From positions 1-35,779 of the IMG/VR virus record IMGVR_UViG_3300031754_000014: a stretch of 35,779 bases of DNA, one strand, 5' to 3'. The notes beneath the pieces are model-generated. The model made no database searches. It was not told the origin of the DNA and saw nothing but the letters and a program-made list of their open reading frames with translations. Both the position numbers and the translations under genes were made by a program. This stretch comes from a virus. Below are positions 1-35,779 of this stretch, piece after piece. Position 1 is the first letter of the stretch. Each line of letters begins with the position of its first letter.

Positions 1-127
1 ACGGGAACTGAGTCTAATAATATTGTTATATCAAACACAGGAAGTAATGGAAATAGTGGCGAAATACGCATTGGTACCAATGGAACTCATACAACCGCTT
101 TCTTTCAAGGAATAGCCGGCGTGACTG
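1..127. repeat. Left copy of 127-bp terminal identity (circular closure)
   Basis: Bases 1-127 are identical to 35653-35779. A perfect 127-base end overlap is what k-mer assemblers leave on circular or circularly permuted molecules, so one copy is redundant. The repeat lies inside a fiber reading frame that stays open through the join, which supports circularity over a biological terminal repeat. Confidence 0.93.
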
Positions 128-468
128 TCACAAGTACCTCAGCTGTTCTTGTTAATACATCTACAGGTCAATTAGGTACTGTTATTTCATCTGCTCGTTT
201 TAAAGACACTATAAAGGATATGGCCAATTCAAGTTCTGCTCTTTTGAGTTTACGTCCTGTCACCTTTACCTATAAATCAGATACAACAAAACAACAACAA
301 TACGGATTGATTGCTGAAGAAGTTGCTCAACTATTTCCAGATCTTGTTGTATATGATAAAGAAGGTAAACCAGAAACAGTACAATATCACTTATTACCAT
401 CACTCTTGTTGAATGAGCTTAAGAAAGCGATTAAACGTATCGAAGTCTTAGAAAAGAGAGGAGCATAA
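1..468 (+). CDS. Fiber protein with C-terminal S74 chaperone domain (3' part; 5' part at 33409-35779)
   Basis: This is the last 155 codons of the fiber gene that begins at 33409. The frame is open from base 1, and the join at 35652/1 keeps frame, giving a full product of about 903 residues. The segment begins in a beta-roll cap (SNNIVISN, then IRIGT) and passes through a TGQLGT linker. It ends in an S74-type intramolecular chaperone (endosialidase CIMCD-like): SSARFKDTI, then LRPVTFTYKSD, YGLIAEEV and a helical tail with LLLNELKKAI. In this family the domain drives trimer folding and then cleaves itself off with a Ser/Lys pair. Here Ser811 and Lys816 of the full protein have the right spacing, but the residue after Ser is Ser rather than the common Asp. 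It is followed two bases later by the next fiber gene, so the two are cotranscribed. Confidence 0.9.
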   Translation, partial: TGTESNNIVISNTGSNGNSGEIRIGTNGTHTTAFFQGIAGVTVTSTSAVLVNTSTGQLGTVISSARFKDTIKDMANSSSALLSLRPVTFTYKSDTTKQQQYGLIAEEVAQLFPDLVVYDKEGKPETVQYHLLPSLLLNELKKAIKRIEVLEKRGA

Positions 469-470
469 GA

Positions 471-3400
471 ATGAGCTTACGATTATCCGGTCTTAATCCT
501 CTATCCTATTTAGGGGTAGAGCCGTTGCAGGTTTCCGCTGATGTTGCCTTTGATAGAGATCCTAATTCTAATGATAGTAAAAACTTTATCTTAATGACGC
601 GTTGGCTTAATAAGACAACTCAGACTTATTGGGTATTAGTAAGCTTATCAGGTGGGGTTGCTAATTGGGTACAATTGGCAGCTGGCTCTGGTTCTGTTGA
701 TGATATTCATACTGATAGTGGTAATGCTGCTCCTGTTGCTGGTGTTATTAATGAGTTCGGTGCCCATGGAATTAACACTGCGGGTTCTGGCAATACTGTC
801 ACCATAGCTATTAATAATGCAATAACTTTAGGTGATCTAGCTCCAATTGCTGCTAATGCGGGAGCGGTAACTGCTCAAACAGGAGACGTTATAATCACTG
901 CCGGCGATCTTACATTACCGAATACAAATACAGCAGCAAATGAGGGTATCATCAAATTCGGTGGTAACCGTTTTGTGAGTAATTACGGTACAAGTAATAC
1001 TTTTGTTGGATCGGGTTCTGGTAATACAACATTGACTACGGCAAGCGCAGTTGGAAATAGTTCTTTAGGCGCAGGTTCATTAGTTTCGCTAACTACAGGT
1101 AATGATAATACAGCTGTTGGATTTGCTACTTTGAATGCGACGACTACGGGAGCGTTTAATGTTGCAGTTGGCGCTAATGCTCTTACTGATACGACTACAG
1201 GTGGTAATAATACCGCAGTTGGATTTGGATCAATAGCATCCAACACAACTGGATCAGATAGTACTGCGGTTGGTTATCAATCTTTAGGTGCCAATACTAC
1301 GGGTACGGGTAATACGGCATTTGGTTCTGGAGTTCTATCATCCAATACTACCGGAGACAACAATACCGCCTACGGGTTTGATGCTTTATCCGCAAACATA
1401 ACCGGATCAGATAACGTAGCAATCGGTGCTAATGCATTAGAAAATAATGATGTATCGGACAATGTCGCAGTTGGATCCGCCGCATTGAAAAATAATACTA
1501 CCGGAACGCATAATACCGCTATAGGTACATCTGCTCTTCAATCAACAGCTACTTCAACAGATAACACTGCTGTCGGATATCAATCGTTATCCAATGCATT
1601 AGCTGGGGGATTTAATACTGCTGTCGGATCACAATCTCTTGAAGCTCTTACAAGTGGAACTAATAATACGGCTGTCGGAGCCGATGCACTCAATAATAAT
1701 GTGAGTGGCGCTAACAATGTTGCAGTTGGTTCATTGGCCCTTTCTTCTGTAACTACAACATCAGGTAATACTGCTATTGGTGCATCTGCTTTAAGCACAG
1801 CACTTGGTACTGATAATGTTGCTGTTGGATTTAGGGCTAATGGTTCAAGTAGCACAGGCCTTGAAAATGTGGCTGTTGGTGCAAATGCAATGCAAAATGC
1901 TTCCACAGCTCGTGATTGTGTTGCAGTTGGATTTGCTGCGCTTAATCAAAATACAGTTACGGATGCACTAGTTGCTGTCGGACATGGGGCTCTTGGTGCA
2001 AATACTACCGGTATAAGTAATACAGCAGTTGGTGATGAATCGGGGGCTAATATTACAACTGGTGGTCACAATACATCAGTTGGTGATAATACATTACATC
2101 TTCTTACAACAGGAAGTCAGAATACTGCTGTGGGGTCTGAAGCTTTAGATGGCATTACGACTGGTAGTCATAATGTTGCTCTTGGTGATGGAGCCGGTGG
2201 AAGTTATACCACTACTGAAAGCAGTAATATTGTTATCGGTAACGATGGAACCATTGCTGATGCCAATACTATTCGTATCGGAACCGAGGGTTCTGGAGCT
2301 GGTCAACAAGATAAATGTTTCATAGCTGGTATAGCGGGTGTAACAGTAAGTAATCTTAACTTAGTTACTATAGATACTACAACCGGACAACTTGGCTCAG
2401 AAGCAAGTGGTGGCATGACAAGTAGCTTTCATACAGATAACGGAACTGCTACTCCTTCTGCAGGTGTAATAACATTTACTGCTATTCCTGCCGGCGGAAC
2501 TATGGAATTTACTGGTTCTGGTTCTACGGTAACTTTAGACTCTACTGATGCTCATAATAACGTTGGATTAGGAGCTGGATCTCTTGCCTCATTAACTGGT
2601 ACAACAAATAATAATACAGCTGTGGGTGTAAATGCACTTCATAGTAATTCAACTGGGACTGATAACTCTGCTTTTGGATTGAATGCTTTGGATGGTAATA
2701 CGACCGGAGGAGCAAATACAGCAGTTGGCTTGGCAGCTTTATCAACAAATACTACGGGATCAGATAATACAGCGGTGGGACATGCAGCTTTGTCTTCCGC
2801 AACGACAGCTAATAATAACACAGCTGTTGGTGCTGGGGCTTTAGCGCAGAGTACGACCGCAACTCAGAATACTGCCATAGGTGCTGATGCTTTAAATTCT
2901 TTAACTACAGGCAATCAGAACACAGCTATTGGATTTGAAGCTTTAGATAGTATAACAACCGGGGCTGACAATATTGCTATCGGGGAAATATCTGGATCTG
3001 CTTTAACCGCAGGCGATAGCAGTAATATCGTGATTGGTAATAATGGGGTTGGTGGCGATAACAATACTATACGTATAGGAACCCAGGGTTCTGGTGGATC
3101 ACAACAGAATAAATGTTTTATAGCGGGCATTACTGGTGTTACGGTCTCTAATAGTAATTTTGTGACTATTGATACTACTACAGGTCAATTGGGAGCCACA
3201 ACAGGGGGATCTGAAGCAAGTAATTTTATTACTGATTCTGGAACTGCCACTCCATCTGGAGGTAATATAACTTTCTCAGGATTAAACGGCGGTGCAACTC
3301 TAAAATTCTCTGGAAGTGGCGCTACAGTTAATTTAAATACGTCTGATGGAAATAATAATACCTTTATAGGGATTCTATCGGGAAATAATACATATACTGG

Positions 3401-4196
3401 TCTTAATAATGCGGGATTTGGAGCAGCGACTCTTGATGCATTAACGAGTGGATCTCAAAATACGGGTATTGGCCATCAAGCAAGTTCAAGTGTGACGACC
3501 GGTGATTATAATACCGGTGTTGGTAATAGTGCGTGTGGTGGCGTTACTACTGGAACTGGTAATACCGGTGTTGGTAACAGTGCTTGTGGTGGTGTTAGCA
3601 CTGGGGATGGAAACACAGCTGTTGGATCAAATGCTTTAGCGGGTCCCGGTCCAATAACGGGGGCTCATAATATAGCTATTGGTCAGAATGCAGCAAGTGC
3701 TTACACTTCAACTGAAAACAGTAATATCATCATTGGTAATGTTGGTGTAGTTAGCGAAACAAATACCATAAGAATAGGTACTTCTGGTAGTGGTGATAGC
3801 CAACAAAATAGATGTTTTATCGCAGGAATTAGTGGTGCTACTTCATCGGGTGGCGTTGGTGTATTCGTAAATGCATCTGGTCAGCTAGGAACGACTACTT
3901 CATCTATACGTTATAAAGAAAATATTAAAGATCTTAGAGATGGTTCTGATATTTATAAATTACGTCCAGTATCATTTACCTATAAGTCGGATCCAGCAAA
4001 GCGCGTGACATTAGGATTAATTGCTGAAGAAGTGGAAAAAGTAATACCTGGATTGGTAATATATAATAATGAGAATCAGGTAGAAACAGTTAGCTATCAG
4101 GAATTGCCAATACTTTTACTTAAAGAACTACAAAGACAACAACAAACAATACAGCAATTACAACAACGATTAGATAAGTTAGAGTCAAAGAAGTAA
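471..4196 (+). CDS. Giant repetitive fiber with three beta-roll cassettes and S74 chaperone domain
   Basis: This is a 1241-residue fiber. Residues 1-70 form a non-repetitive head (NPLSYLGVEPL, then RDPNSNDSKNF and WLNKTTQTYW), probably the virion attachment part. From about residue 160 (FGGNRFVSN) it consists of NTAVG-xxAL-type repeats of about 15-17 residues, like the NSVAIG beta-roll of YadA-type trimeric adhesin heads. Three cassettes each end in the same cap, SNIVIGN ... NTIRIGT ... QQ(D/N)KCFIAGI, near residues 583, 850 and 1082, and a TGQLG linker follows. The C terminus is an S74 intramolecular chaperone (SSIRYKENI with Ser1144 and Lys1149; LGLIAEEV) plus a Gln-rich coiled coil to 1241. 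The start ATG has a good ribosome site (gagaggagcataag). It is likely a trimeric receptor-binding fiber, and a hairpin terminator follows. Confidence 0.9.
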   Translation: MSLRLSGLNPLSYLGVEPLQVSADVAFDRDPNSNDSKNFILMTRWLNKTTQTYWVLVSLSGGVANWVQLAAGSGSVDDIHTDSGNAAPVAGVINEFGAHGINTAGSGNTVTIAINNAITLGDLAPIAANAGAVTAQTGDVIITAGDLTLPNTNTAANEGIIKFGGNRFVSNYGTSNTFVGSGSGNTTLTTASAVGNSSLGAGSLVSLTTGNDNTAVGFATLNATTTGAFNVAVGANALTDTTTGGNNTAVGFGSIASNTTGSDSTAVGYQSLGANTTGTGNTAFGSGVLSSNTTGDNNTAYGFDALSANITGSDNVAIGANALENNDVSDNVAVGSAALKNNTTGTHNTAIGTSALQSTATSTDNTAVGYQSLSNALAGGFNTAVGSQSLEALTSGTNNTAVGADALNNNVSGANNVAVGSLALSSVTTTSGNTAIGASALSTALGTDNVAVGFRANGSSSTGLENVAVGANAMQNASTARDCVAVGFAALNQNTVTDALVAVGHGALGANTTGISNTAVGDESGANITTGGHNTSVGDNTLHLLTTGSQNTAVGSEALDGITTGSHNVALGDGAGGSYTTTESSNIVIGNDGTIADANTIRIGTEGSGAGQQDKCFIAGIAGVTVSNLNLVTIDTTTGQLGSEASGGMTSSFHTDNGTATPSAGVITFTAIPAGGTMEFTGSGSTVTLDSTDAHNNVGLGAGSLASLTGTTNNNTAVGVNALHSNSTGTDNSAFGLNALDGNTTGGANTAVGLAALSTNTTGSDNTAVGHAALSSATTANNNTAVGAGALAQSTTATQNTAIGADALNSLTTGNQNTAIGFEALDSITTGADNIAIGEISGSALTAGDSSNIVIGNNGVGGDNNTIRIGTQGSGGSQQNKCFIAGITGVTVSNSNFVTIDTTTGQLGATTGGSEASNFITDSGTATPSGGNITFSGLNGGATLKFSGSGATVNLNTSDGNNNTFIGILSGNNTYTGLNNAGFGAATLDALTSGSQNTGIGHQASSSVTTGDYNTGVGNSACGGVTTGTGNTGVGNSACGGVSTGDGNTAVGSNALAGPGPITGAHNIAIGQNAASAYTSTENSNIIIGNVGVVSETNTIRIGTSGSGDSQQNRCFIAGISGATSSGGVGVFVNASGQLGTTTSSIRYKENIKDLRDGSDIYKLRPVSFTYKSDPAKRVTLGLIAEEVEKVIPGLVIYNNENQVETVSYQELPILLLKELQRQQQTIQQLQQRLDKLESKK

Positions 4197-4642: not shown

Positions 4643-5380
4643 TTATTTACTGTTCATACTCTCTTTAATATTACGGATCTGCTTGACGGTAGCCTCGTAA
4701 TATTTAGCGGGTATTTCCCCTATTTTTTCTATCTTCAATATCTCGAGTATGCGATCGTGTATTTCTGGATAACCATCAAGTTCGTAAATGATATTACTTG
4801 CTTGCGTACTATTTATGAAGACTTCAGGCTGTTTTGGTGTATTTGTGGGTGCTGGCGTTGGTGCTGGCGTTGTGTAAGTTGGTTTACGATAATCACCGTC
4901 GTCATCGATCGTATCATTGCTTATAGTTATACCAAGTAATGACATCAACGAGTAACGGCGATAATATGTCAATGCAGAGCCATATGCTTGGTGTTCGTTG
5001 GGAGACTTTAATACAATCACCTTCTTGCGCGATTCTATCCATTGCCCAGATTTATGCATAAGAATCGTGTGGAGAATGGTTGAACTATCTTGAAGGACTC
5101 GCTCTTGCTGAATAACACAAAGACTATTCTTGGTCAAAATTGGCCTAAGCTCATTCATAATGGCATCAATATCTGCATACTTATAATTGTGGCCCTTGCG
5201 ATTTTTGCCGATTTCTGGAAATTCGCTTTGGGCAAGACATAAAGCATTGGCAAGTTCATTGAGTTGGATAGAAGAATACTCACCATTGAATATTCGTTCT
5301 GTTCGGAGATATTCTAGCTTTTGTCCCAAGTTACTTATTGAGGCATCAATATCGCTTAATTGTTGTTGTAAGTTTTCCAT
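4643..5380 (-). CDS. erf: ERF-family single-strand annealing recombinase
   Basis: This is a 245-residue protein of the ERF family, the P22 Erf-type annealing proteins that pair complementary single strands and can circularise or repair phage DNA. Visible marks are the early block KGHNYKYADIDAIMNELRPI, then QWIESR, then the signature GSALTYYRRYSLMSLLGI, followed by an acidic NDTIDDDGD. A Thr/Pro-rich linker (TTPAPTPAPTNTPK) leads to a small helical C-terminal domain. I start it at the ATG at 5380, which has AAGGAT upstream and overlaps the previous stop (TGATG), rather than at an upstream in-frame codon at 5419. It is the only recombination-mediator gene in the genome. With the RusA resolvase at 7971 it could form a phage recombination pathway. 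Confidence 0.9.
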   Translation of the reverse strand: MENLQQQLSDIDASISNLGQKLEYLRTERIFNGEYSSIQLNELANALCLAQSEFPEIGKNRKGHNYKYADIDAIMNELRPILTKNSLCVIQQERVLQDSSTILHTILMHKSGQWIESRKKVIVLKSPNEHQAYGSALTYYRRYSLMSLLGITISNDTIDDDGDYRKPTYTTPAPTPAPTNTPKQPEVFINSTQASNIIYELDGYPEIHDRILEILKIEKIGEIPAKYYEATVKQIRNIKESMNSK

Positions 5381-5619
5381 CACATATCCTTTTTGTAGAT
5401 TTTGTTTAACCAATAACAACCAAACATCAATACACTAAAAACAAACCCAACAAAACATATACTCTTCATCACTTCAGGCGGAACTTCTTTGTAGTTATCA
5501 CACTTTGTAGAATACCTACCATCAACATGGCCAATCTTTTCCCTTTCTCCACGAAGATTATGGTATTCATCAGCGGCGATTCGGACTATACGTCGTATTT
5601 CTTGTTCACTTAGTTGCAT
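5380..5619 (-). CDS. Small protein with C-terminal membrane anchor
   Basis: This is a 79-residue protein with a charged cytosolic N-terminal helix (LSEQEIRRIVRIAADEYHNL) and one hydrophobic segment near the C terminus (CFVGFVFSVLMFGCYWL) followed by a basic tail. The topology is N-in, tail-anchored. Its TGA overlaps the ATG of the ERF gene by one base, a sign of translational coupling, and its own start overlaps the end of the upstream 39-residue ORF. No family is recognised. Confidence 0.7.
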   Translation of the reverse strand: MQLSEQEIRRIVRIAADEYHNLRGEREKIGHVDGRYSTKCDNYKEVPPEVMKSICFVGFVFSVLMFGCYWLNKIYKKDM

Positions 5620-6700: not shown

Positions 6701-7984
6701 ATGACAATTAATAGTAATGAATATAGTTTAAAAAATCATACACGTCAAGTTTTAGAGAATGTCGGTTTCCATAGTGCAAACCGTAGATTAAATTCTATTG
6801 GCAACAAGGTTCGCAGAAGAAGAACAATTCCTGTAAAAAGATGGAACGAGTTGCAGCCAGTTCCAGAAAGCGCACTGCTTACATCCCGGTTGTCCACTCT
6901 ATCGAGCGTTCTTACAGCATCAGAACGAGTACTATTGAATATCATGATAGAGTGCGACAACCGTTATCCGGTTATCTACGTTAGCCAAGAAACACTTGCT
7001 GATTATGTGGGTATAAGTCGCCAGCATGTTAATAAGTCATTACATGCCTTAGAAGCAAAGGGCTTGATAGCTATTAACTATCGCCACATGAACTCTTGTA
7101 TCTACAAGATATCGTCAGTTTTCCATCTTAAAGAGATCCGTGATCGTCTCAAGAATTACCTCCCATCATTGAATAGTCTTTACATCACCATGTTAGTCCC
7201 ACTCATGTTTTCAGTGTGTAATTATTCCAGGTTCAAACATAGAAAGACGACACAATTATATAAAGAACAGAATGTTATTTATAACAATACAACAACAACT
7301 GTAAGTCATACACGGAGCGATACAATGTCCGACCAGGCAAAAAAGACCAGAGTTAGTATTCCCGGTTTAATCTTCACTGAACAAGAACAAGATCAGATTG
7401 ATCAGTACTCAGACAAAACCATTTCCTATGCAAAAGAGGTGTTTTACAAAGCAAAGAACATCAACAATCCAACCAGATTCTTCTTGGGGATATGTAGAAA
7501 ACATGCGAATGGGTTGTTGTTTGATAATAAAAAGGGTGGTGGGTTTGTTTCACCTACGTTGCAACCAAATAAACCAGCAGATGTTGGTTCAAGAACTTCA
7601 TCAATGGGAAAGACGGATGCAATTCCGTCTTACATGAAGCCACAACCACAATTGCAAGAAAAAGTAGAGTATCATCCGGTAGAAGAGTACTACCGATCAG
7701 AGTTGTTACGAGAAACACCGAAGTACAAACGAGCAGTTGCTATCTTGAAGTACCATCCGGATAATCCATTTGCCTCGCACATGACTCGTTTAGGTCTTCC
7801 CCTTACCTGTGATCCCAAAATACTGGCAGCGATGAGGGAACGTGAAAGGTTATGCCACTTTCAAGGACAGAAGTCGTGCCCTATGAATACCCAACCATCC
7901 AAGGATTGTGCCTTTGCGGAGTTGTTTAATCCAGCAGAAGATGCGTCAAATTTGACTCAGGAGAAACAAAATGACGTCTTTTGA
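6701..7984 (+). CDS. Winged-helix DNA-binding protein, probable replication initiator/organizer
   Basis: This is a 427-residue protein. At about residues 95-130 it carries a clear winged helix-turn-helix (YVSQETLADYVGISRQHVNK, then ALEAKGLI), the arrangement found in phage replication proteins of the O/replisome-organizer type and in plasmid initiators. A basic N terminus (KVRRRRTIPVKR) precedes it. A polar linker and a C-terminal region with Cys residues (CHFQGQKSCPMNT) follow. It is the first gene after a hairpin-rich stretch, and the RusA gene overlaps its 3' end by 14 bases. No helicase or primase is encoded, so recruiting host factors is a reasonable but inferred role. The start is ATG with AGAGG upstream. 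Confidence 0.7.
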   Translation: MTINSNEYSLKNHTRQVLENVGFHSANRRLNSIGNKVRRRRTIPVKRWNELQPVPESALLTSRLSTLSSVLTASERVLLNIMIECDNRYPVIYVSQETLADYVGISRQHVNKSLHALEAKGLIAINYRHMNSCIYKISSVFHLKEIRDRLKNYLPSLNSLYITMLVPLMFSVCNYSRFKHRKTTQLYKEQNVIYNNTTTTVSHTRSDTMSDQAKKTRVSIPGLIFTEQEQDQIDQYSDKTISYAKEVFYKAKNINNPTRFFLGICRKHANGLLFDNKKGGGFVSPTLQPNKPADVGSRTSSMGKTDAIPSYMKPQPQLQEKVEYHPVEEYYRSELLRETPKYKRAVAILKYHPDNPFASHMTRLGLPLTCDPKILAAMRERERLCHFQGQKSCPMNTQPSKDCAFAELFNPAEDASNLTQEKQNDVF

Positions 7985-8426
7985 TATGGAACACCGGGAC
8001 AAAGAAAATCTTTCGTCTAATGACAACGTCTTTGGTTTTTCAATACCGGGCGATCCTATACCTTTACAAAGGGCGCGACATGGTAATAAGATGACGTGGG
8101 ATCCGCAAAAGCAGATCAAAGAAGAACTACGACAGCGATTTACACACTATTATCCCAATCATGTACCATGGGAAGGTCCTTTAGGTCTTGAGGTAACCTT
8201 TTATATGAAAGTTCCTATTTCACTAAGTCCTAAGAATGCCCAGGCAAAATACAATAAACCTCATATTTTTAAGCCAGATTTGAGCAATCTGATTAAATTT
8301 GTTGAAGACGCTTTTAATGGGATTTTGCACAAAGACGATAGCTTATTTGCTAAGATAACTGCTTCAAAAGTATATACCCATTTAAAGCCACGAACTGATG
8401 TAGTTATACGAAAGATAGAAAAATGA
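7971..8426 (+). CDS. rusA: RusA-family Holliday junction resolvase
   Basis: This is a 151-residue RusA-type endonuclease, which cuts four-way junctions formed in recombination or replication. Family marks are the N-terminal FSIPGDPIPLQRAR strand and turn, the core KPDLSNLIKFVEDAFNG (from about residue 101) and the later HKDDSLFAK ... SKVY. E. coli RusA uses Asp70, Asp72 and Asp91. Here the first (PD) and last (KDD) positions are kept, but the second is Ser. The Lys of the core is present. Its start overlaps the preceding gene, and CAGGAG lies upstream. It probably works with the ERF annealing protein and debranches DNA before headful packaging. Confidence 0.88.
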   Translation: MTSFDMEHRDKENLSSNDNVFGFSIPGDPIPLQRARHGNKMTWDPQKQIKEELRQRFTHYYPNHVPWEGPLGLEVTFYMKVPISLSPKNAQAKYNKPHIFKPDLSNLIKFVEDAFNGILHKDDSLFAKITASKVYTHLKPRTDVVIRKIEK

Positions 8427-13565: not shown

Positions 13566-15629
13566 ATGCTTTTCCCTCAGCTTGGCCCCAAATATTATGA
13601 TGAAAAAGATCGGGGCATTTGTGAACGAATGGAAGTCTTTTACTCTCAGGCAATTACTATAAATCAGGCTTTTTGGGGTGAGGCCGATACTGATACTCGA
13701 TTCGAATGTGGCGACCAGACATTGTGGAATGATATCTATGGTAACCTTCCTTCTAATCGTCGCCAGCAATTCAATTTCAATCGCATTCGTCGTGTCTGTA
13801 ACATGGTAGATGGCCAGCAACGACGCAGTCGTAAGTCAATGGTGGCGACGCCGAGAGAAAACGGTAATGCAGACACAGCAGATCTTTTTTCTAGCATTTT
13901 TTCTTTTCTTGGTGATCAGGGAATGTATGAAACAATATCAGAAGCATTCCACGGTGGCGCATTAGTAACGGGCATGAATCTTTTAGAGGTCTGGATGGAC
14001 TACCGTCAAGATCCGATCAATGGTGATATTCGCATTGACAATAATAACTATAATGCCTTTCTTATAGACCCATTCTTTAAAAAGAGAGATCTTTCAGACT
14101 GTAACGCTGTCTGGAGAAGGCGTTATATAACCAAGCACGAAGCACTATCATTATTTCCTGATCGCGCTGAAGAAATTGTATCATTACCTACAAGCGATCC
14201 GGGTAATGGACGTGATGGCAAATTCCAATACCTTCCTGAGTCGTTCAATTATGGCTTTGTTAATCTTATTACCTGTGACAATTTCTATTATCGTGACTTT
14301 AGAACACAGAAGATGCTTGCAGATTCTCAGACGGGTGAAGTGACTGAGTGGACGCTTGATGATAATGATCGCTTAAAGCATTTCTTATCATTGTATCCCC
14401 AAGTTACGGTTATTGAACAAGAAATTCCTACCGTCAGATTAGCCATTGTTCTCCAAGGTAGAGTATTTTACGATGGTCCAAATCCAATGGGTATAGATAC
14501 TTATCCGTTTGTTCCGGTTATGGGTTATTACAATCCACAGCTTCCCTATTTCCCGTGGCGGGTTCAAGGCGTTGTCCGTGGTTTGCGTGATGCGCAATAT
14601 CTCTATAATCGTCGTCGTATTATTGAACTCGACATCTTAGAGTCTCAAATCAATTCTGGTTGGAAGTACAAAGAAGGCGCTCTTATCAATCCAAAAGATG
14701 TCTTCTTGAATGGTCAAGGTCGTGGTCTTGCTCTTAAAGATGAAGCAAACATGACCGATGTTGAACAAATACAACCGCCGCAAATACCACCATCAATGAT
14801 CCAACTTTCAGAGTTATTAGCTCGGGAAGTTATGGAAATATCTGGTGTAAATGAAGAGCTTCTTGGTTCAGCTAATGATGACAAGGCTGGCGTTCTTGCA
14901 ATGTTACGTCAAGGTGCCGGACTTACTACCTTACAGATCCTTTTTGATCAACTTGATTATTCACAGAAACTTCTGGGCAAAATTGTTATTGATCTGGTTC
15001 AAAAGAACTGGACCCCCGCAAAAGTAAGTAAGGTTACACAAAAGGAAATAACTCCTGAATTCTACAATAAGCTTTTTGGACAATACGATGTGGTAGTAGA
15101 AGATGGTTTAAATACTTCAACCCAACGTCAAATGCAATTTGCTCAAGCACTGCAATTGCGTGAACTTGGTGTTCCGATACCTGATCAATTCTTGGTAGAA
15201 GCAGCTACATTACAGAATAAAAAAGATCTTGTTGAGCAATTACAACAGCAGCAACAACAACAACAACAAATGCAGCAGATGCAAATGCAATCAGCTATGG
15301 CACAACAACAAGCTGAAACCGAACTCACACAAGCGCGTGCAATTGCTGATAGAGGTCTTGGACTTGAGCGTACAAGCCGTGTCGAAGAAAATAAAGCATT
15401 GGCAATCGAACGTCGTTCTGCTGCGCTTAAAGATCAAGATATTGCATTCTTGAATCTGGTTAAGGCATTGAAAGAGATAGACACTATCGATCTGAACCAC
15501 ATAGAAAAGCTCTTGACGCTTGCCAATGTTATGAAGCAAACTGATACCAAAATAAATCAACCTATGGTGAGCACCAATAATGATTTAGTGAATAGACTCA
15601 CCCCGCAGAATGTATCTGCACAAGGGTAG
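13566..15629 (+). CDS. Portal protein (P22-like)
   Basis: This 687-residue protein forms the dodecameric vertex through which DNA enters and leaves. The sequence resembles P22-type podovirus portals in size and order: an N-terminal helical part (FYSQAITINQAFWGEADTD), the QFNFNRIRRVCNMVDGQQRR segment, a wing region, a clip/stem part (FPWRVQGVVRGLRDAQYLYN; RRIIELDILESQINSGW) and a long Gln-rich C-terminal helix (about 555-600), like the P22 barrel. The ribosome site is AAAGGATAG. It follows a candidate promoter and starts the structural operon. CAA/CAG repeats at 15240-15300 code for the Gln run. Confidence 0.9.
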   Translation: MLFPQLGPKYYDEKDRGICERMEVFYSQAITINQAFWGEADTDTRFECGDQTLWNDIYGNLPSNRRQQFNFNRIRRVCNMVDGQQRRSRKSMVATPRENGNADTADLFSSIFSFLGDQGMYETISEAFHGGALVTGMNLLEVWMDYRQDPINGDIRIDNNNYNAFLIDPFFKKRDLSDCNAVWRRRYITKHEALSLFPDRAEEIVSLPTSDPGNGRDGKFQYLPESFNYGFVNLITCDNFYYRDFRTQKMLADSQTGEVTEWTLDDNDRLKHFLSLYPQVTVIEQEIPTVRLAIVLQGRVFYDGPNPMGIDTYPFVPVMGYYNPQLPYFPWRVQGVVRGLRDAQYLYNRRRIIELDILESQINSGWKYKEGALINPKDVFLNGQGRGLALKDEANMTDVEQIQPPQIPPSMIQLSELLAREVMEISGVNEELLGSANDDKAGVLAMLRQGAGLTTLQILFDQLDYSQKLLGKIVIDLVQKNWTPAKVSKVTQKEITPEFYNKLFGQYDVVVEDGLNTSTQRQMQFAQALQLRELGVPIPDQFLVEAATLQNKKDLVEQLQQQQQQQQQMQQMQMQSAMAQQQAETELTQARAIADRGLGLERTSRVEENKALAIERRSAALKDQDIAFLNLVKALKEIDTIDLNHIEKLLTLANVMKQTDTKINQPMVSTNNDLVNRLTPQNVSAQG

Positions 15630-30022: not shown

Positions 30023-30862
30023 ATGGCAGTTAATTATCAACCTAATACGGACGTATATGGGTTAGGCCAACCTATTAAAAATTATTTTCCTGTACCAATA
30101 GTTGCAAAGAGAAGTCCTACAACATCTGATAAGGCACAAATTGGTACTATTTGGATTAACACAGTATCAAACTCTTTTTTTGTTTTGACTTCTATTGTTG
30201 CAAATTCTGCTACCTGGACAGATAATTTGTCAGTTGCCAATCTTACTGTTGGTGGCAATTTAACTGTGGCTGGAACATCAGCTCTTAATGGCGGTGCAAC
30301 CATAACTGGCACCACAAATATTAATACTTCTGGTGCTGCTGTAACTACCATAGGTACCGGTGGAACAGGTGCAGTCAATATAGGTAATGCAACTGGAAAT
30401 ACCGCTGTGACAGGTTCCGTGACAGCTTCCACAGGATTTGTGGCTACAACCGGTGGTTTAACTGTTACAGCCGGTGGTGCCGGTATAACAGGTACTACTA
30501 ACATTAACGTAAGTGGTACAGGTATAACTACCATAGGAACTGGTGGTACAGGAGCTACTCGTATCGGTAATGCTACAGGAAATACTGCGGTCACAGGCTC
30601 ATTAACAGCATCTACAACTCTTACAGCTACTTTAGGAAATGTAACTGCTGCAAACGGTGATTTTGTTGCTTCTACTGCGGGTAAAGGTGTTGTATTAGGT
30701 GGTGGTGCTAAAGTTGTATCTGGAACAGGTGATCCAAATACTGTTGTTACAGCCCCACAAGGATCTCTCTATCTTCGTCTTGATGGTAGTAGTTCTTCTA
30801 CGCGTGCTTATATTAATAGTGATGGCGCAACTACATGGATTGCCGTAACAACAGCTTCATAA
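30023..30862 (+). CDS. Fiber protein with attachment head and repeat shaft
   Basis: This is a 279-residue protein. The head, residues 1-70, has the same plan as the head of the 471 fiber (SPTTSDKAQIGTIWINTVSN, FFVLTS, SATW), probably the virion anchor. The shaft has a near-exact 61-residue duplication (TTNIN-SG, TTIGTGGTGA, IGNATGNTAVTGS, TAST) starting near 30308 and 30491. The C terminus (SLYLRLDGSSSSTRAYINSD, TWIAV) is a common fiber end domain. AAGGAG precedes the ATG. It begins the fiber region, and a terminator follows. Confidence 0.8.
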   Translation: MAVNYQPNTDVYGLGQPIKNYFPVPIVAKRSPTTSDKAQIGTIWINTVSNSFFVLTSIVANSATWTDNLSVANLTVGGNLTVAGTSALNGGATITGTTNINTSGAAVTTIGTGGTGAVNIGNATGNTAVTGSVTASTGFVATTGGLTVTAGGAGITGTTNINVSGTGITTIGTGGTGATRIGNATGNTAVTGSLTASTTLTATLGNVTAANGDFVASTAGKGVVLGGGAKVVSGTGDPNTVVTAPQGSLYLRLDGSSSSTRAYINSDGATTWIAVTTAS

Positions 30863-30874
30863 GAATATGATACT

Positions 30875-30906
30875 ATCCCTCTGGCATAGTGCTGGAGGGA
30901 TTTTTC
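30875..30906 (+). terminator. Rho-independent terminator after the first fiber gene
   Basis: ATCCCTC pairs with GAGGGAT (7 bp, 13-base loop), followed directly by TTTTTC. It is probably partial, since the following genes have no obvious promoter. Confidence 0.7.
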
Positions 30907-30916
30907 TAGGATAATT

Positions 30917-31102
30917 ATGGTAAAGACACAGCATATTATTGAGATCGTTAAAGGTGACCGTACTTATACCTTTGTCATGCCATTGCAGGCGCCTCTTGGT
31001 GAGGCTTATGATGCAGCGTTTCAGGTACTTAAAACAGTAACTGAACTTGCGTATCAAGCAGCTGAAGGTGCTCGAGCTAAATCATTAGAAGAACATAATT
31101 AA
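30917..31102 (+). CDS. Small acidic hypothetical protein between fibers
   Basis: This is a 61-residue protein. A beta start (TQHIIEIVKGDRTYTFVMPL) leads to a helix (GEAYDAAFQVLKTVTELAYQ) and a charged end. The start has TAGGA upstream. Short proteins of this look often lie next to fiber genes, and a chaperone or assembly role is possible but unproven. Confidence 0.65.
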   Translation: MVKTQHIIEIVKGDRTYTFVMPLQAPLGEAYDAAFQVLKTVTELAYQAAEGARAKSLEEHN

Positions 31103-31120
31103 ATAGATAGGAGAGTAGAT

Positions 31121-31459
31121 ATGGCTACAGCTAGCGGGATACAATTGAGAGCAGATCCACAAAGATCGATTGCCTTCGGATCAATTGGTAGCAGTTATTC
31201 TGCTATTGGAACTCAATTAGACCAACCAATGCGCATTGTTTATATAGTGAATGGCACTGATGCATTACTTCAGTTTTCATTCACAGGTAATACAGATCAT
31301 TTCGTTATACCAGCACAATCATATATTCTCTTTGATGTTTCCAGTGATCAGGCTCTAACTCAAGGATTTTATATATCAAAGGGTACTACCGTCTATGTAA
31401 AAAGAATTGGTACTCCTTCAAGCGGAACTGTCTATTTGTCTGCCTTTTATGGTGTTTAA
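31121..31459 (+). CDS. Small beta-rich virion-type protein
   Basis: This is a 112-residue protein with AGGAG upstream. The sequence is beta-rich (RSIAFGSIGSSYSAIGTQLD; RIVYIVNGTDALLQFSFTGN; FVIPAQSYILFDVSSD), ending in SGTVYLSAFYGV. It looks like a small jelly-roll or decoration-type domain, possibly a fiber cap or tail component. No family recognised. Confidence 0.65.
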   Translation: MATASGIQLRADPQRSIAFGSIGSSYSAIGTQLDQPMRIVYIVNGTDALLQFSFTGNTDHFVIPAQSYILFDVSSDQALTQGFYISKGTTVYVKRIGTPSSGTVYLSAFYGV

Positions 31460-31474
31460 TAGAAAGGATTCGCT

Positions 31475-33400
31475 ATGTCACAGTTATCTAATTTCTCGCT
31501 AGGAACCGGTTCAACAGATGTTCAGACGTTAACTGGTAACACTGGTGGTGCGGTTGGACCTACGGCGGGTAATATTAATGTTGTTGGTTCAGGAAATATC
31601 ACGATAGCCGGAAATCCCGGAACATCTACGTTAACAGCAACCGTTGTTGGAACAACTAATCATGCTGTCCAGATTGGAAATGCAAGTGGTAGTTTGACTT
31701 CTATTGGAGTTGGAACTACTGGTCAAGTTCTTACGGGGGTTACCGGCGGTGATCCTGTATTTGCATCACCTGCTGCTAGCTCAATCACCATAACTGGTGA
31801 TACTGGTGGTGGTTTAACCGGCAATAGTTTTACCTTTACTGGTGGAGCTACCGGATTAACGTTTAATGGTGCGGTAAGTACTGAAACTTTATCGGGTACA
31901 TTAGTAGTAGCACACGGTGGTACGGGGGCTACTACATTAACAAATCATGGTGTTGTTATAGGACAAGGTACTTCGGCAGTCCATATAACTACTGCTGGTA
32001 CAAACGGCCAGCTTTTGATTGGTGGTAATAGTGCCGATCCAGCATTTGCCAGTTTAACATCAACTGGTGGAACTATTGTCTATACTCCTGGTCTCAATAC
32101 TTTAAATCTAGAGACATCCGGAGCAACGGCAAATTCATTTGTCACAGGAAGTGGTACTGCGACGCCATCTGCTGGCGTATTAACGGTGCCTAATGGTAGC
32201 AATATCAATACGACTGGATCCGGATCAACATTAACTATTAATCTAGTTAATAGCCCTTCAGTATCAGGCTCAGTCACCGCTGGTACGGGACTTGTAGCAA
32301 CAACCGGTGGTGTGACAGCGACTGCGGGAAATATCGTAGCATCTGCTGGTAATATAAATGCAACTGTAGGCTCAATGTCTGCAGGAACAACCGTAACTGC
32401 TGGTACTGGTGTAACAGCAACAACTGGCAATATCACGGCGTCATCAGGCAATGTCGTAGTAACAGCTGGAAATGTTACATTGCCAAACACAAATGGTGCC
32501 GGCACTCAAGGCGAAATCACCTTTGGTGGAAATCGTTTCGTTACTAATGCCGGAACTTTGAATACGTTTGTTGGTCAGTCTTCAGGTACTACTAATAATA
32601 CCGGAGCAAGTAATACCGGTCTGGGAGCTTCTGCCCTTGGATCATTGACGAGCGGTAATAATAATACAGCTGTAGGTGATCATGCGCTTGGGGCTAAAAC
32701 ATCAAATGATTTTAACGTTGCTCTTGGTGCTTCTGCATTATCTTCTCTTACTACGGGAGATAATAATATAGCCATAGGTTACAGTTCAGGTTCAAATTAT
32801 ACGAGTACTGAAACATCAAATATTGTCATAGGAAATCTAGGAACAGCTCTTGAAGGTAATACTATACGGATAGGAACATCGGGTTCTGCCGGTGGTCAAC
32901 AGAATAGATGTTTTATAGCTGGTATTGACGGGGTTAATGTTGGATCAACAGCTCAAGTTGTTACTGAAGTTAGTGGACAATTGGGTTCAGCGGTTATAAC
33001 AGCAGGTACCAATATTAGTGTTACTCCGGGTGCAAATACTATAACCATAGCGGCAACTGGCTCAGCATCGTTTTCGTGGAGTGTTGTAACTGGCGCTACA
33101 CAATCAATGGCAGTTAACCATGGATATATTGCTAATAATGGTGGAACGTGTGTCATGACACTGCCTGCTACAGCGGCGGTTGGTGATATCCTTGAGGTGA
33201 CTGGTATTAATAATGCTACTGGATGGCAAATAGCCCAGAATTCAGGTCAAACAGTTCATTTTGGGTCATCTAATACAACAACAGGAGCTACTGGCTCATT
33301 AACATCTACTGCAACTCGAGATTCAGTTCGATTGGTGTGTGTAGTTGCTAATACTGATTTTAATGTACTATCAAGTATAGGAAATATAACTGTTGCTTAG
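31475..33400 (+). CDS. Repetitive fiber with non-S74 C-terminal domain
   Basis: This is a 641-residue protein. The N-terminal 200 residues are a Gly/Thr-rich shaft (GTGSTDVQTLTGNTGGAVGP; IGNASGSLTSIGVGTTGQVL). Then come a TATPSAGVLTVPNG module, an FGGNRFVTN start block, two or three NTAVG-type beta-roll repeats, and the cap (SNIVIGNLGT, NTIRIGT, QQNRCFIAGI) shared with the other fibers. The last 110 residues differ: MAVNHGYIANNGGTCVMTLP, then GDILEVTGINNATGWQIAQ, then FNVLSSIGNITVA, a fiber-end domain known from other phages as a separate trimeric cap. It has no S74 domain. Confidence 0.85.
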   Translation: MSQLSNFSLGTGSTDVQTLTGNTGGAVGPTAGNINVVGSGNITIAGNPGTSTLTATVVGTTNHAVQIGNASGSLTSIGVGTTGQVLTGVTGGDPVFASPAASSITITGDTGGGLTGNSFTFTGGATGLTFNGAVSTETLSGTLVVAHGGTGATTLTNHGVVIGQGTSAVHITTAGTNGQLLIGGNSADPAFASLTSTGGTIVYTPGLNTLNLETSGATANSFVTGSGTATPSAGVLTVPNGSNINTTGSGSTLTINLVNSPSVSGSVTAGTGLVATTGGVTATAGNIVASAGNINATVGSMSAGTTVTAGTGVTATTGNITASSGNVVVTAGNVTLPNTNGAGTQGEITFGGNRFVTNAGTLNTFVGQSSGTTNNTGASNTGLGASALGSLTSGNNNTAVGDHALGAKTSNDFNVALGASALSSLTTGDNNIAIGYSSGSNYTSTETSNIVIGNLGTALEGNTIRIGTSGSAGGQQNRCFIAGIDGVNVGSTAQVVTEVSGQLGSAVITAGTNISVTPGANTITIAATGSASFSWSVVTGATQSMAVNHGYIANNGGTCVMTLPATAAVGDILEVTGINNATGWQIAQNSGQTVHFGSSNTTTGATGSLTSTATRDSVRLVCVVANTDFNVLSSIGNITVA

Positions 33401-33408
33401 GAGATGAC

Positions 33409-35779
33409 ATGTCTACGAATAATAGTATAAATAACGCAGTCGTTGCGAATAATTTTTCATTACCAAATACCAATTCGGGTGGTTCTCAAGGAGAGATAAC
33501 ATTTGGCGGTTCCCGTTTTGTAAGTAACTTTGGAACGAGCAATACTTTTCTTGGAGCTGGATCTGGAAACACATCATTAAGTACCGCTGGGCAAAATGTT
33601 GGCGTTGGAAGTCTTTCATTAACTCTTCTTACAACGGGTGCTGCGAATACAGCTGTAGGTAGCCTGTCTCTTAATGCATTACAAAGCGGATCTGACAATA
33701 CTGCAGTTGGGTCGGTCGCATTAACTGCGTTAACAACTGGCGGCAATAATACTGCGGTTGGATATAATACTCTTGCTACTTCAAGTACCAATTCCCACAA
33801 TACGGCTGTGGGATCAACGTCTCTTAATCAGTTGAGTGGTGCCAATGATAATAGTGCATTAGGATTTGCAACACTGACTGCTTTAACAACGGGACCTCAA
33901 AATACTGCCATTGGTAGTAATGCATTAAGTACGGATACTACGGGTTCTGGTAATACTGCTGTTGGTTATAATTCCATGGCAAATTATAACGATTCTTCCA
34001 ATGGTAAAGGACATAATGTTGCTATTGGATGGAATTCATTGCGTGATGGTAACGGTTCTCTTAGTGGCAATATAGCCATTGGTCAATCATCATTGCAAAA
34101 CTTGAACGGTACCAGTTCAGATCGGGCGGGAAATGTTTCTGTAGCGTCTTATCCGAATACAACTCAGCAAATTACTACCGGTACATTCAATACTAATATT
34201 GGCCATCAATCATTGAATAATCTTACTACCGGAAGTACTAATATAGCTATCGGATCATCTGCTGGAAATTCTTATACTTCTAGCGAATCATCCAATATTG
34301 CCATAGGTAATAGTGGTACCGCAGCAGAATCTAATGTTATCAGATTGGGTACGTATGGAACTAGCTCTGGTCAACAAAATCAATGCTTTATAGCTGCAGC
34401 CTATAGTAATTTTGGAACTCAAAATGCTTTTGTAGGTGAGTTGGCAGGTAATACTACTCTTACAACTGGATCAGCCACTGAGAACACCGCAGTTGGATAT
34501 AATTCACTTCATGCACTAACAACAGGTGGTAGTAATACTGCTGTGGGCAGAAATGCTTTAACGGCTCTTACCACTGGAACAAATAATGTAGCTGTTGGTG
34601 AATCTGCACTTGCTACGCTTACAACGGTAAGTGGTCTTACGGCTATTGGTGAGCAAGCATTAACTAATAGTACAACGGGAACATCACTTGTCGCCGTTGG
34701 TAATGGGGCGTTGCTTTCTAATACAACAGGGAATAATAATACAGCTGTTGGATATAACGCATTAAATTCTAATAGCACGACATCGGATAATACCGCTGTT
34801 GGTGCTGGTTGTCTTAGTTCAAATACTGGCAATAGAAATAGTGCAATAGGAAAAAATGCTGGGCAAGCATTAACTGGTGATGATAATACAGCTCTAGGAT
34901 CTAGTTCTTTGTCAGGTGGTAGTAATAGTGCAAGTTCTAATACTGCAATTGGTTCAGCGTCTGGCGTGGCGATAACGAGTGGCGCAAATAATACGCTGGT
35001 TGGTTACAATAGTGGTAATGCCGTAACAAGTGGTGCTTCAAACATTGCTGTAGGTAAAGATGCTATAAAGCTTGTAACTACAGGAAATAGAAATATAGGC
35101 ATCGGTGTATCTACCTTAGCTGCTCTTACTACGGTGGGTGATTTGATTGCTATTGGAGATAGTGCTTTAACTGCTAATACTTCTGGAACAGGAAATATTG
35201 GTATAGGGTCAAGCGCATTGAATGCTACTACTACCGGTACTAATAATATAGCTATTGGATTAAATGCTCAGATTACGGCTACGGGATCTTCAAATGTTGG
35301 TGTTGGTGGTGGTACATTATCATCCGCCACTGGTGGATCAAATGTTGCCGTCGGTTATTTAGCTCTTTCTAAAAATAATGTTGGATCTAGTAATACAGCT
35401 GATTTTAACATAGCAATTGGAGCCAATGCCTTATCGGCACTAACATCAGGTACTCAGAATGCGATTATTGGTTCCAATGCTGGAACATCTGTGACTACAT
35501 CCACCAATAACGTTGGAGTAGGGCATGCTTGCCTTAATGCAGTCACAACCGGTTCCGGAAATAACGTTGCGCTTGGATCAATGTCATTACAGGGAATAAC
35601 AACGGGAACTGGCAATATAGCTATAGGGGCTAATGCAGGAAATTCATATGCAACGGGAACTGAGTCTAATAATATTGTTATATCAAACACAGGAAGTAAT
35701 GGAAATAGTGGCGAAATACGCATTGGTACCAATGGAACTCATACAACCGCTTTCTTTCAAGGAATAGCCGGCGTGACTG
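33409..35779 (+). CDS. Giant repetitive fiber, 5' part (continues at base 1-468; S74 end)
   Basis: The ATG at 33409 (GGAGATGAC upstream) begins a frame open to the window edge and joining 1-468 through the 127-bp overlap, for about 903 residues. The N terminus (NAVVANNFSLPNTNSGGSQG, EITFGGSRFVSNFG) lacks the attachment head of the 471 and 30023 fibers, so it probably assembles onto another fiber. Some 40 beta-roll repeats follow (NTAVG-xxAL, with NVAIG, SALGF and NIAIG variants) and one internal cap (SNIAIGNSGT, IRLGT, QQNQCFIA) at about residue 310. It is not listed as complete only because the window cuts it. Confidence 0.88.
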   Translation, partial: MSTNNSINNAVVANNFSLPNTNSGGSQGEITFGGSRFVSNFGTSNTFLGAGSGNTSLSTAGQNVGVGSLSLTLLTTGAANTAVGSLSLNALQSGSDNTAVGSVALTALTTGGNNTAVGYNTLATSSTNSHNTAVGSTSLNQLSGANDNSALGFATLTALTTGPQNTAIGSNALSTDTTGSGNTAVGYNSMANYNDSSNGKGHNVAIGWNSLRDGNGSLSGNIAIGQSSLQNLNGTSSDRAGNVSVASYPNTTQQITTGTFNTNIGHQSLNNLTTGSTNIAIGSSAGNSYTSSESSNIAIGNSGTAAESNVIRLGTYGTSSGQQNQCFIAAAYSNFGTQNAFVGELAGNTTLTTGSATENTAVGYNSLHALTTGGSNTAVGRNALTALTTGTNNVAVGESALATLTTVSGLTAIGEQALTNSTTGTSLVAVGNGALLSNTTGNNNTAVGYNALNSNSTTSDNTAVGAGCLSSNTGNRNSAIGKNAGQALTGDDNTALGSSSLSGGSNSASSNTAIGSASGVAITSGANNTLVGYNSGNAVTSGASNIAVGKDAIKLVTTGNRNIGIGVSTLAALTTVGDLIAIGDSALTANTSGTGNIGIGSSALNATTTGTNNIAIGLNAQITATGSSNVGVGGGTLSSATGGSNVAVGYLALSKNNVGSSNTADFNIAIGANALSALTSGTQNAIIGSNAGTSVTTSTNNVGVGHACLNAVTTGSGNNVALGSMSLQGITTGTGNIAIGANAGNSYATGTESNNIVISNTGSNGNSGEIRIGTNGTHTTAFFQGIAGVT
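35653..35779. repeat. Right copy of 127-bp terminal identity
   Basis: It is identical to 1-127 and should be removed to give the circular sequence of 35,652 bp. Confidence 0.93.

What the first reader, a model, noticed from the sequence alone, without database searches (positions are those of the whole stretch)
30023..35779. Fiber superlocus built from exchangeable cassettes
Four fiber genes (30023, 31475, 33409-468, 471-4196) take about 9 kb of 35.65 kb. Three of them share a start block (F/FGGxRFVSN), NTAVG repeats and a cap (SNI-IGN, IRIGT, QQ, FIAGI). The 471 gene has three such cassettes in a row. N-terminal heads (two types) and C-terminal ends (S74, or a different cap) are combined differently. 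This looks like a system for changing receptor-binding fibers by recombination between DNA repeats, with the phage's own ERF protein available to promote it.
Basis: partly seen in the sequence, partly recalled or inferred. Interest (0 to 1): 0.75.

Follow-up and report, generated by a model that had tools for sequence, protein, structure and literature searches.

The report
Modular tail-fibre locus of uncultured phages
A quarter of this small phage genome encodes tail fibres built from repeated adhesin-like blocks; related phages carry the blocks in different numbers and combinations, so the fibres evolve by swapping parts, but nothing in this genome points to a dedicated switching system.

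Summary
Four fibre genes (9,204 bp, 26% of a circular 35,652-bp genome) form one locus; three carry 17-residue NTAVG repeat arrays ending in a conserved cap. Gene 471-4196 has three caps in series, but only its first array has the FGGxRFVSN start block.

In 49 of 53 genomes examined the arrays recur, 1-4 per gene, with different heads and ends. Relatives G042 and G060 have identical portal proteins, yet one has two fibre genes and the other a single fused gene with different cassettes. One shaft repeat of G060 is a clean hybrid of two neighbouring units of G042. G032 and G037 have 4 versus 3 cassettes in the same gene.

For the window itself, recombination through DNA repeats is not shown. Its cassettes are saturated at silent sites, share no exact stretch above 18 bp, and five of six caps are nearer to caps of other phages. 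No invertase, reverse transcriptase or inverted-repeat pair was found. ERF is not specific: 34 of 50 related records have it, and recombination traces are not confined to the fibres. Best reading: vigorous but ordinary mosaic evolution of receptor-binding fibres.

The parts
30023..30862 (+). Fibre gene A, 279 aa: head of the class shared with D, two GTTNINxSG..TTIGTGGTGA repeats, no NTAVG cassette
   Evidence: head profile found in 47 of 53 genomes
31121..31459 (+). 112-aa small protein conserved between gene A and B in the fibre locus of relatives
   Evidence: profile in 47 genomes
31475..33400 (+). Fibre gene B, 641 aa: B-type head, one SITGDTGG shaft unit (31781-32065), linker (32138-32245), start block (32477-32587), short NTAVG array (32612-32815), cap (32798-32986), knob-type end (33068-33397)
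33409..35652 (+). Fibre gene C, first part (continues at 1-468 across the circle junction; 903 aa in all): stub head, start block (33457-33576), NTAVG array, truncated cap (34276-34398)
34393..34461 (+). Junction in gene C where a cap cut after FIA is followed directly by a start-like block (AAYSNFGTQNAFVGELAGNTTL): likely old in-frame deletion between two cassettes
1..468 (+). Fibre gene C, last part: degenerate second cap (1-177) and S74 intramolecular chaperone (187-465)
   Evidence: PF13884, E 5.9e-13
471..4196 (+). Fibre gene D, 1241 aa: head (471-689), linker (705-821), start block (912-1028), three NTAVG arrays with caps at 2208-2396, 3006-3194, 3705-3890, linkers before arrays 2 and 3 (2427-2555, 3225-3350), S74 chaperone (3900-4193)
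   Evidence: (PF13884, E 2.2e-10)
3518..3625 (+). Only tandem array the repeat finder reports in the fibre genes: 51-bp (17-codon) unit, 2.1 copies, 78% match, inside D cassette 3
4643..5419 (-). ERF single-strand annealing protein
   Evidence: PF04404, E 1.1e-25
7971..8426 (+). RusA Holliday-junction resolvase
   Evidence: PF05866, E 1.6e-20
13566..15629 (+). Portal protein, used to define the phage family

Best explanation
The locus encodes several tail fibres or spikes of an uncultured phage, podovirus-like by its distant portal relatives (inferred). Each fibre is a chain of modules: a virion-anchoring head, shaft units, one to several YadA-like beta-roll segments (17-residue repeats closed by a conserved cap), and a C-terminal end (S74 chaperone or a knob; in relatives also a Gly-rich tip). 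Over evolutionary time the modules are gained, lost, fused and exchanged, mostly between phages of the same family, by ordinary homologous and homeologous recombination and occasional unequal recombination between repeat units. The phage's ERF and RusA could take part but are not specific to this. Function by inference: receptor binding, with diversification driven by host surface change. Shown: module anatomy, different combinations in relatives, breakpoints in fibre genes, one hybrid repeat unit. Inferred: receptor binding, trimerisation, S74 self-cleavage, ERF involvement.
For: Same portal family in 48 of 50 cassette-bearing contigs. 114 caps in 49 genomes, 1-4 per gene, with varied heads and ends. 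G042 against G060: identical portal proteins and 92.8-98.2% DNA over most of the core, but two genes (590 and 465 aa) against one fused gene of about 950 aa; identity falls off through the head toward the start block and resumes sharply at a shaft unit. Informative sites fall in uniform blocks upstream of and in the head (z -15.9). G060 shaft unit 3 is 92% like G042 unit 2 in its first 100 bp and 92-100% like unit 3 from 150 to 250 bp; independent contig G063 shares the register. G032 against G037: 4 against 3 cassettes in one gene; cassette 3 of the latter is nearest to a cassette of the other fibre gene (238 against 186 bits). G039, G078 and G066: 90-94% portal identity, no nucleotide match across the fibre block. 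Fold: beta-roll; the top structural matches are mostly YadA-type heads.
Against: No close relative of the window's own phage was found (best portal about 70% aa), so exchange in this genome is inferred from its family. All genomes are metagenome assemblies, and repeats can mis-assemble. Module profiles are short and repetitive, so some calls are uncertain. Caps in one gene are slightly more alike than caps of different genomes (nt 0.58 against 0.53), so old tandem duplication also contributed. The beta-roll model is a single chain, and its cap is poorly predicted.
Confidence: 0.8

Rival explanations
1. A dedicated diversity system: cassettes within one genome recombine often through their DNA repeats, promoted by ERF, so a population carries many fibre versions.
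For: Serial cassettes and three cassette genes in one genome; a hybrid shaft unit in a sister phage shows that repeat-on-repeat recombination happens; ERF and RusA encoded; a 51-bp tandem duplication.
Against: Within the window no exact repeat above 18 bp, best cassette pair 71% nt, silent sites at random expectation. Over 49 genomes no same-gene cap pair exceeds 72% nt. ERF found in 34 of 50 records; recombination traces also in the ERF region and portal.
Confidence: 0.1
2. Old tandem duplication of a start-roll-cap block inside the lineage, followed by plain divergence, with little exchange between phages.
For: D caps 1 and 2 are the closest same-gene pair of the survey (72% nt); nearest neighbour of 11 of 114 caps lies in the same gene against 0.7% expected by chance (before removal of four duplicate entries).
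Against: 93 of 114 caps are nearest to a cap of another genome; five of six in the window. Heads and ends are recombined in relatives.
Confidence: 0.09
3. A known targeted system: diversity-generating retroelement or invertible fibre segment.
For: Only the location in fibre genes.
Against: No reverse transcriptase or site-specific recombinase among the scanned window proteins; no inverted exact repeat of 16 bp or more in the genome, and no template-like direct repeat.
Confidence: 0.01

Closest known systems
Domain mosaicism of phage receptor-binding proteins (Smug et al. 2023, PMC10684548)
   Same: Heads, shafts and ends exchanged between phages, including recent events, tail fibres among the strongest classes
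   Different: That work measures domain sharing across all phages; here serial beta-roll cassettes in one uncultured family, with breakpoints and a hybrid unit seen in sister genomes
YadA-like heads of trimeric autotransporter adhesins (YadA, BoaA, EibD, AtaA)
   Same: Predicted beta-roll of short repeats; several heads in series occur in large adhesins (own knowledge)
   Different: 17-residue repeat, no Pfam match, own cap motif, phage fibre heads and S74 or knob ends instead of a membrane anchor
Pelagiphage tail fibres with a YadA-type C-terminus in metaviromic islands (Mizuno et al. 2014, PMC3909814)
   Same: YadA-type fibre region variable between related phages
   Different: T7-like fibre head and marine hosts; no serial cassettes described in the passages read
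Rad52-like relaxed recombination in temperate phages (De Paepe et al. 2014, PMC3945230)
   Different: Tested in lambda and phi80; the window's own cassettes fall below the homology that recombined there, and ERF action here is untested

Membership tests
S74 (endosialidase-type) intramolecular chaperone | C-terminal PF13884 domain above the curated cut-off | tested here: met
   Genes C and D, 49.3 and 41.1 bits against a cut-off of 22
S74 (endosialidase-type) intramolecular chaperone | Self-cleavage after trimer assembly | not testable with these tools
   Needs expression
YadA-like head domain | Match to a curated sequence profile of the family | tested here: not met
   No such match for fibres B, C, D or any of 48 cassettes
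YadA-like head domain | Left-handed parallel beta-roll, trimeric | tested here: inconclusive
   Single-chain model with one strand per 17 residues, pLDDT about 90 in the repeats; YadA Z 9.2, BoaA 9.0, EibD 8.6, AtaA 8.5, but an ice-binding protein also 9.0; no PDB match at Foldseek E 0.001; trimer not modelled
Mosaic receptor-binding fibre | Same domain joined to different partners in related phages | tested here: met
Mosaic receptor-binding fibre | Protein binds a host receptor | not testable with these tools
   Host unknown
Diversity-generating retroelement | Reverse transcriptase and template/variable repeat | tested here: not met
   Large ORFs scanned, none an RT; no repeat above 19 bp apart from the end overlap
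Invertible fibre segment (Mu Gin type) | Invertase gene and inverted crossover sites | tested here: not met
   No inverted exact repeat of 16 bp or more; no recombinase among scanned proteins

The most novel reading that the evidence does not exclude
The family keeps a shared pool of beta-roll cassettes, and its members gain, lose and trade whole cassettes fast enough that single populations carry several fibre versions, through repeat-on-repeat recombination within or between co-infecting genomes.
Probability: 0.15. Interest if true: 0.65.

Novelty: new member of a known kind. Interest (0 to 1): 0.36.

Why it matters
Fibre mosaicism in phages is known, so the principle is not new. The useful part is a widespread uncultured phage family (dozens of 34-41-kb contigs) in which a single module type recurs 1-4 times per gene with interchangeable heads and ends, and in which sister genomes expose breakpoints and one hybrid repeat unit. 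That makes the pace and route of fibre change measurable from metagenomes, and shows that a repeat-rich fibre gene can be mosaic while its own repeats are too diverged to be likely recombination substrates today.

Tried and rejected
Cap search in cellular genomes gave three loci in MAG or uncultured-bacterium contigs only, too little to name a host. PDB by sequence: no relevant match. A broad repeat-motif DNA scan hit 14 contigs and was not used. First pass of the module profiles did not iterate and was redone. Counts held four circle-wrap duplicates, removed. The link of G032's extra cassette to G037's other gene (167 against 161 bits) is too weak to claim. DGR and inversion were considered and rejected.

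Full report
What is there. The window is a complete circular virus record: its first and last 127 bases are identical, giving 35,652 bp. Four fibre genes lie in one block: A 30023-30862 (279 aa), B 31475-33400 (641 aa), C 33409-35652 plus 1-468 (903 aa) and D 471-4196 (1241 aa), with a small gene at 31121. They take 9,204 bp, 25.8% of the genome. B, C and D hold arrays of 17-residue repeats of the type NTAVGxxALxxxTTGxx. Each array ends in a cap, SNIVIGNxG...NTIRIGTxGSGxGQQNxCFIAGIxGVT...GQLG. The start block FGGxRFVSN stands before the first array of B, C and D only. Arrays 2 and 3 of D start with another linker, TDxGTATPSxG. In C the first cap is cut after FIA and runs straight into a start-like block, which looks like an old in-frame deletion. 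C and D end in S74 chaperones above Pfam's cut-off; B ends in a different knob.

DNA-level test in the window. No exact repeat above 18 bp exists in the fibre genes. The best cassette pair (D caps 1 and 2) is 76% identical in protein and 71% in DNA; four-fold sites agree at 11 of 24. Over all pairs they scatter around the 35% expected from codon use alone. So the cassettes are old relative to each other, and no recent copying between them is visible. The only tandem array reported inside the fibre genes is one 51-bp unit in D, 2.1 copies at 78%. There are no exact inverted repeats of 16 bp or more, and no reverse transcriptase or site-specific recombinase among the proteins scanned.

The family. 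Portal searches found no relative above about 70% amino-acid identity. A cap profile hit 108 places in viral contigs, many of them in contigs of 34-41 kb, but only three in cellular genomes. Of 50 cap-bearing contigs, 48 encode a homologue of the window's portal. I compared 53 genomes with short module profiles (short and repetitive, so approximate). Caps occur in 49 genomes, 114 in all, with 49 genes holding one, 20 two, 7 three and 1 four. They are joined to different heads and to S74, knob, Gly-rich or other ends. By DNA, the nearest cap lies in another genome for 93, in the same gene for 11 and in another gene of the same genome for 10. In the window, five of six are nearest to another phage.

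Direct evidence for exchange in relatives. (1) G042 and G060 have identical portal proteins and 92.8-98.2% DNA identity over most of the core. G042, like the more distant G076, has gene X (590 aa, two cassettes, its own end) followed by gene Y (465 aa, shaft units, knob). G060 and G063 have one fused gene of about 950 aa (968 in G060 if counted from the furthest ATG) with X's head, two different cassettes, the shaft units and Y's knob. Identity decays through the head toward the first start block and resumes sharply at a shaft unit. (2) Upstream of and within X's head, informative sites fall in nearly uniform blocks (G060 like G063, then like neither, then like G042, then like G063), a clear mosaic (runs test z -15.9). 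The same test gives -13.7 for the downstream fibre genes, -11.4 for the ERF-replication region, -4.5 for the portal and +0.4 for the terminase. Recombination is therefore not confined to the fibres. (3) The shaft units are out of register between G042 and G060. G060's third unit matches G042's unit 2 at 92% over its first 100 bp and G042's unit 3 at 92-100% from 150 to 250 bp, with 14 runs against 39 expected. G063, from another metagenome, has the same register, which argues against a single assembly error. (4) G032 and G037 (83% portal) carry 4 and 3 cassettes in the corresponding gene, and G037's last cassette is nearer to a cassette of G032's other fibre gene. (5) G039, G078 and G066 share 90-94% portal identity and about 71-83% DNA in the core, but no nucleotide match across the fibre block.

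Fold. A model of B's cassette (48-sequence alignment, mean pLDDT 76.7, about 90 in the repeats, low in the cap) is a beta-roll with one strand per repeat. Structural comparison puts YadA, BoaA, EibD and AtaA heads at Z 8.5-9.2, tied with an ice-binding beta-roll at 9.0. Foldseek finds no PDB match at E 0.001 but finds viral proteins annotated as YadA-like or S74. No Pfam YadA match was seen. I describe it as YadA-like in predicted shape, not as a member of that family.

Mechanism. The most likely account is that the locus makes several modular receptor-binding fibres whose parts are exchanged between family members by homologous and homeologous recombination, with occasional unequal exchange between repeat units. 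The published limits for a related annealing protein (about 30 bp minimum for Red-beta; no recombinants detected with 67% identity and an 11-bp longest exact stretch; PMC3945230) make present-day recombination among the window's own cassettes unlikely. This is not absolute: units 2 and 3 of G042, the pair nearest to the hybrid, share only 14 bp exact today. ERF was found in 34 of 50 related records, so it does not look required; other recombinases were not searched for.

Verdict. The modular reading is supported in the family. The reading as a system for changing fibres through DNA repeats in this genome is not shown. Mosaicism of receptor-binding proteins is established (PMC10684548), and YadA-type variable fibre regions in marine phages have been described (PMC3909814), so this is a new member of a known kind, with good material for measuring fibre turnover.

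Noticed in passing
L086:6603-10835 (relative G020): Terminase large subunit split into four homologous pieces in one open frame of 1426 aa, with three intein-splicing stretches and LAGLIDADG: apparently three inteins in one terminase gene
   Followed up: partly
L044:4323-6476 (G025); also G005, G008 and G029: Terminase reading frame enlarged by an insert; an intein-splicing domain is confirmed only in G025
   Followed up: partly
Relatives G001, G002, G003: Two ERF matches each, one of them with in-frame stops: a decaying second copy
   Followed up: no
window 7971-8426: RusA resolvase gene (PF05866), a second recombination gene beside ERF
   Followed up: no
L183, L184, L185: The only cellular-genome contigs with the cap motif are from a Holophagaceae MAG, an Acidobacterium MAG and an unnamed bacterium; possible host hint or binned phage contigs
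   Followed up: no
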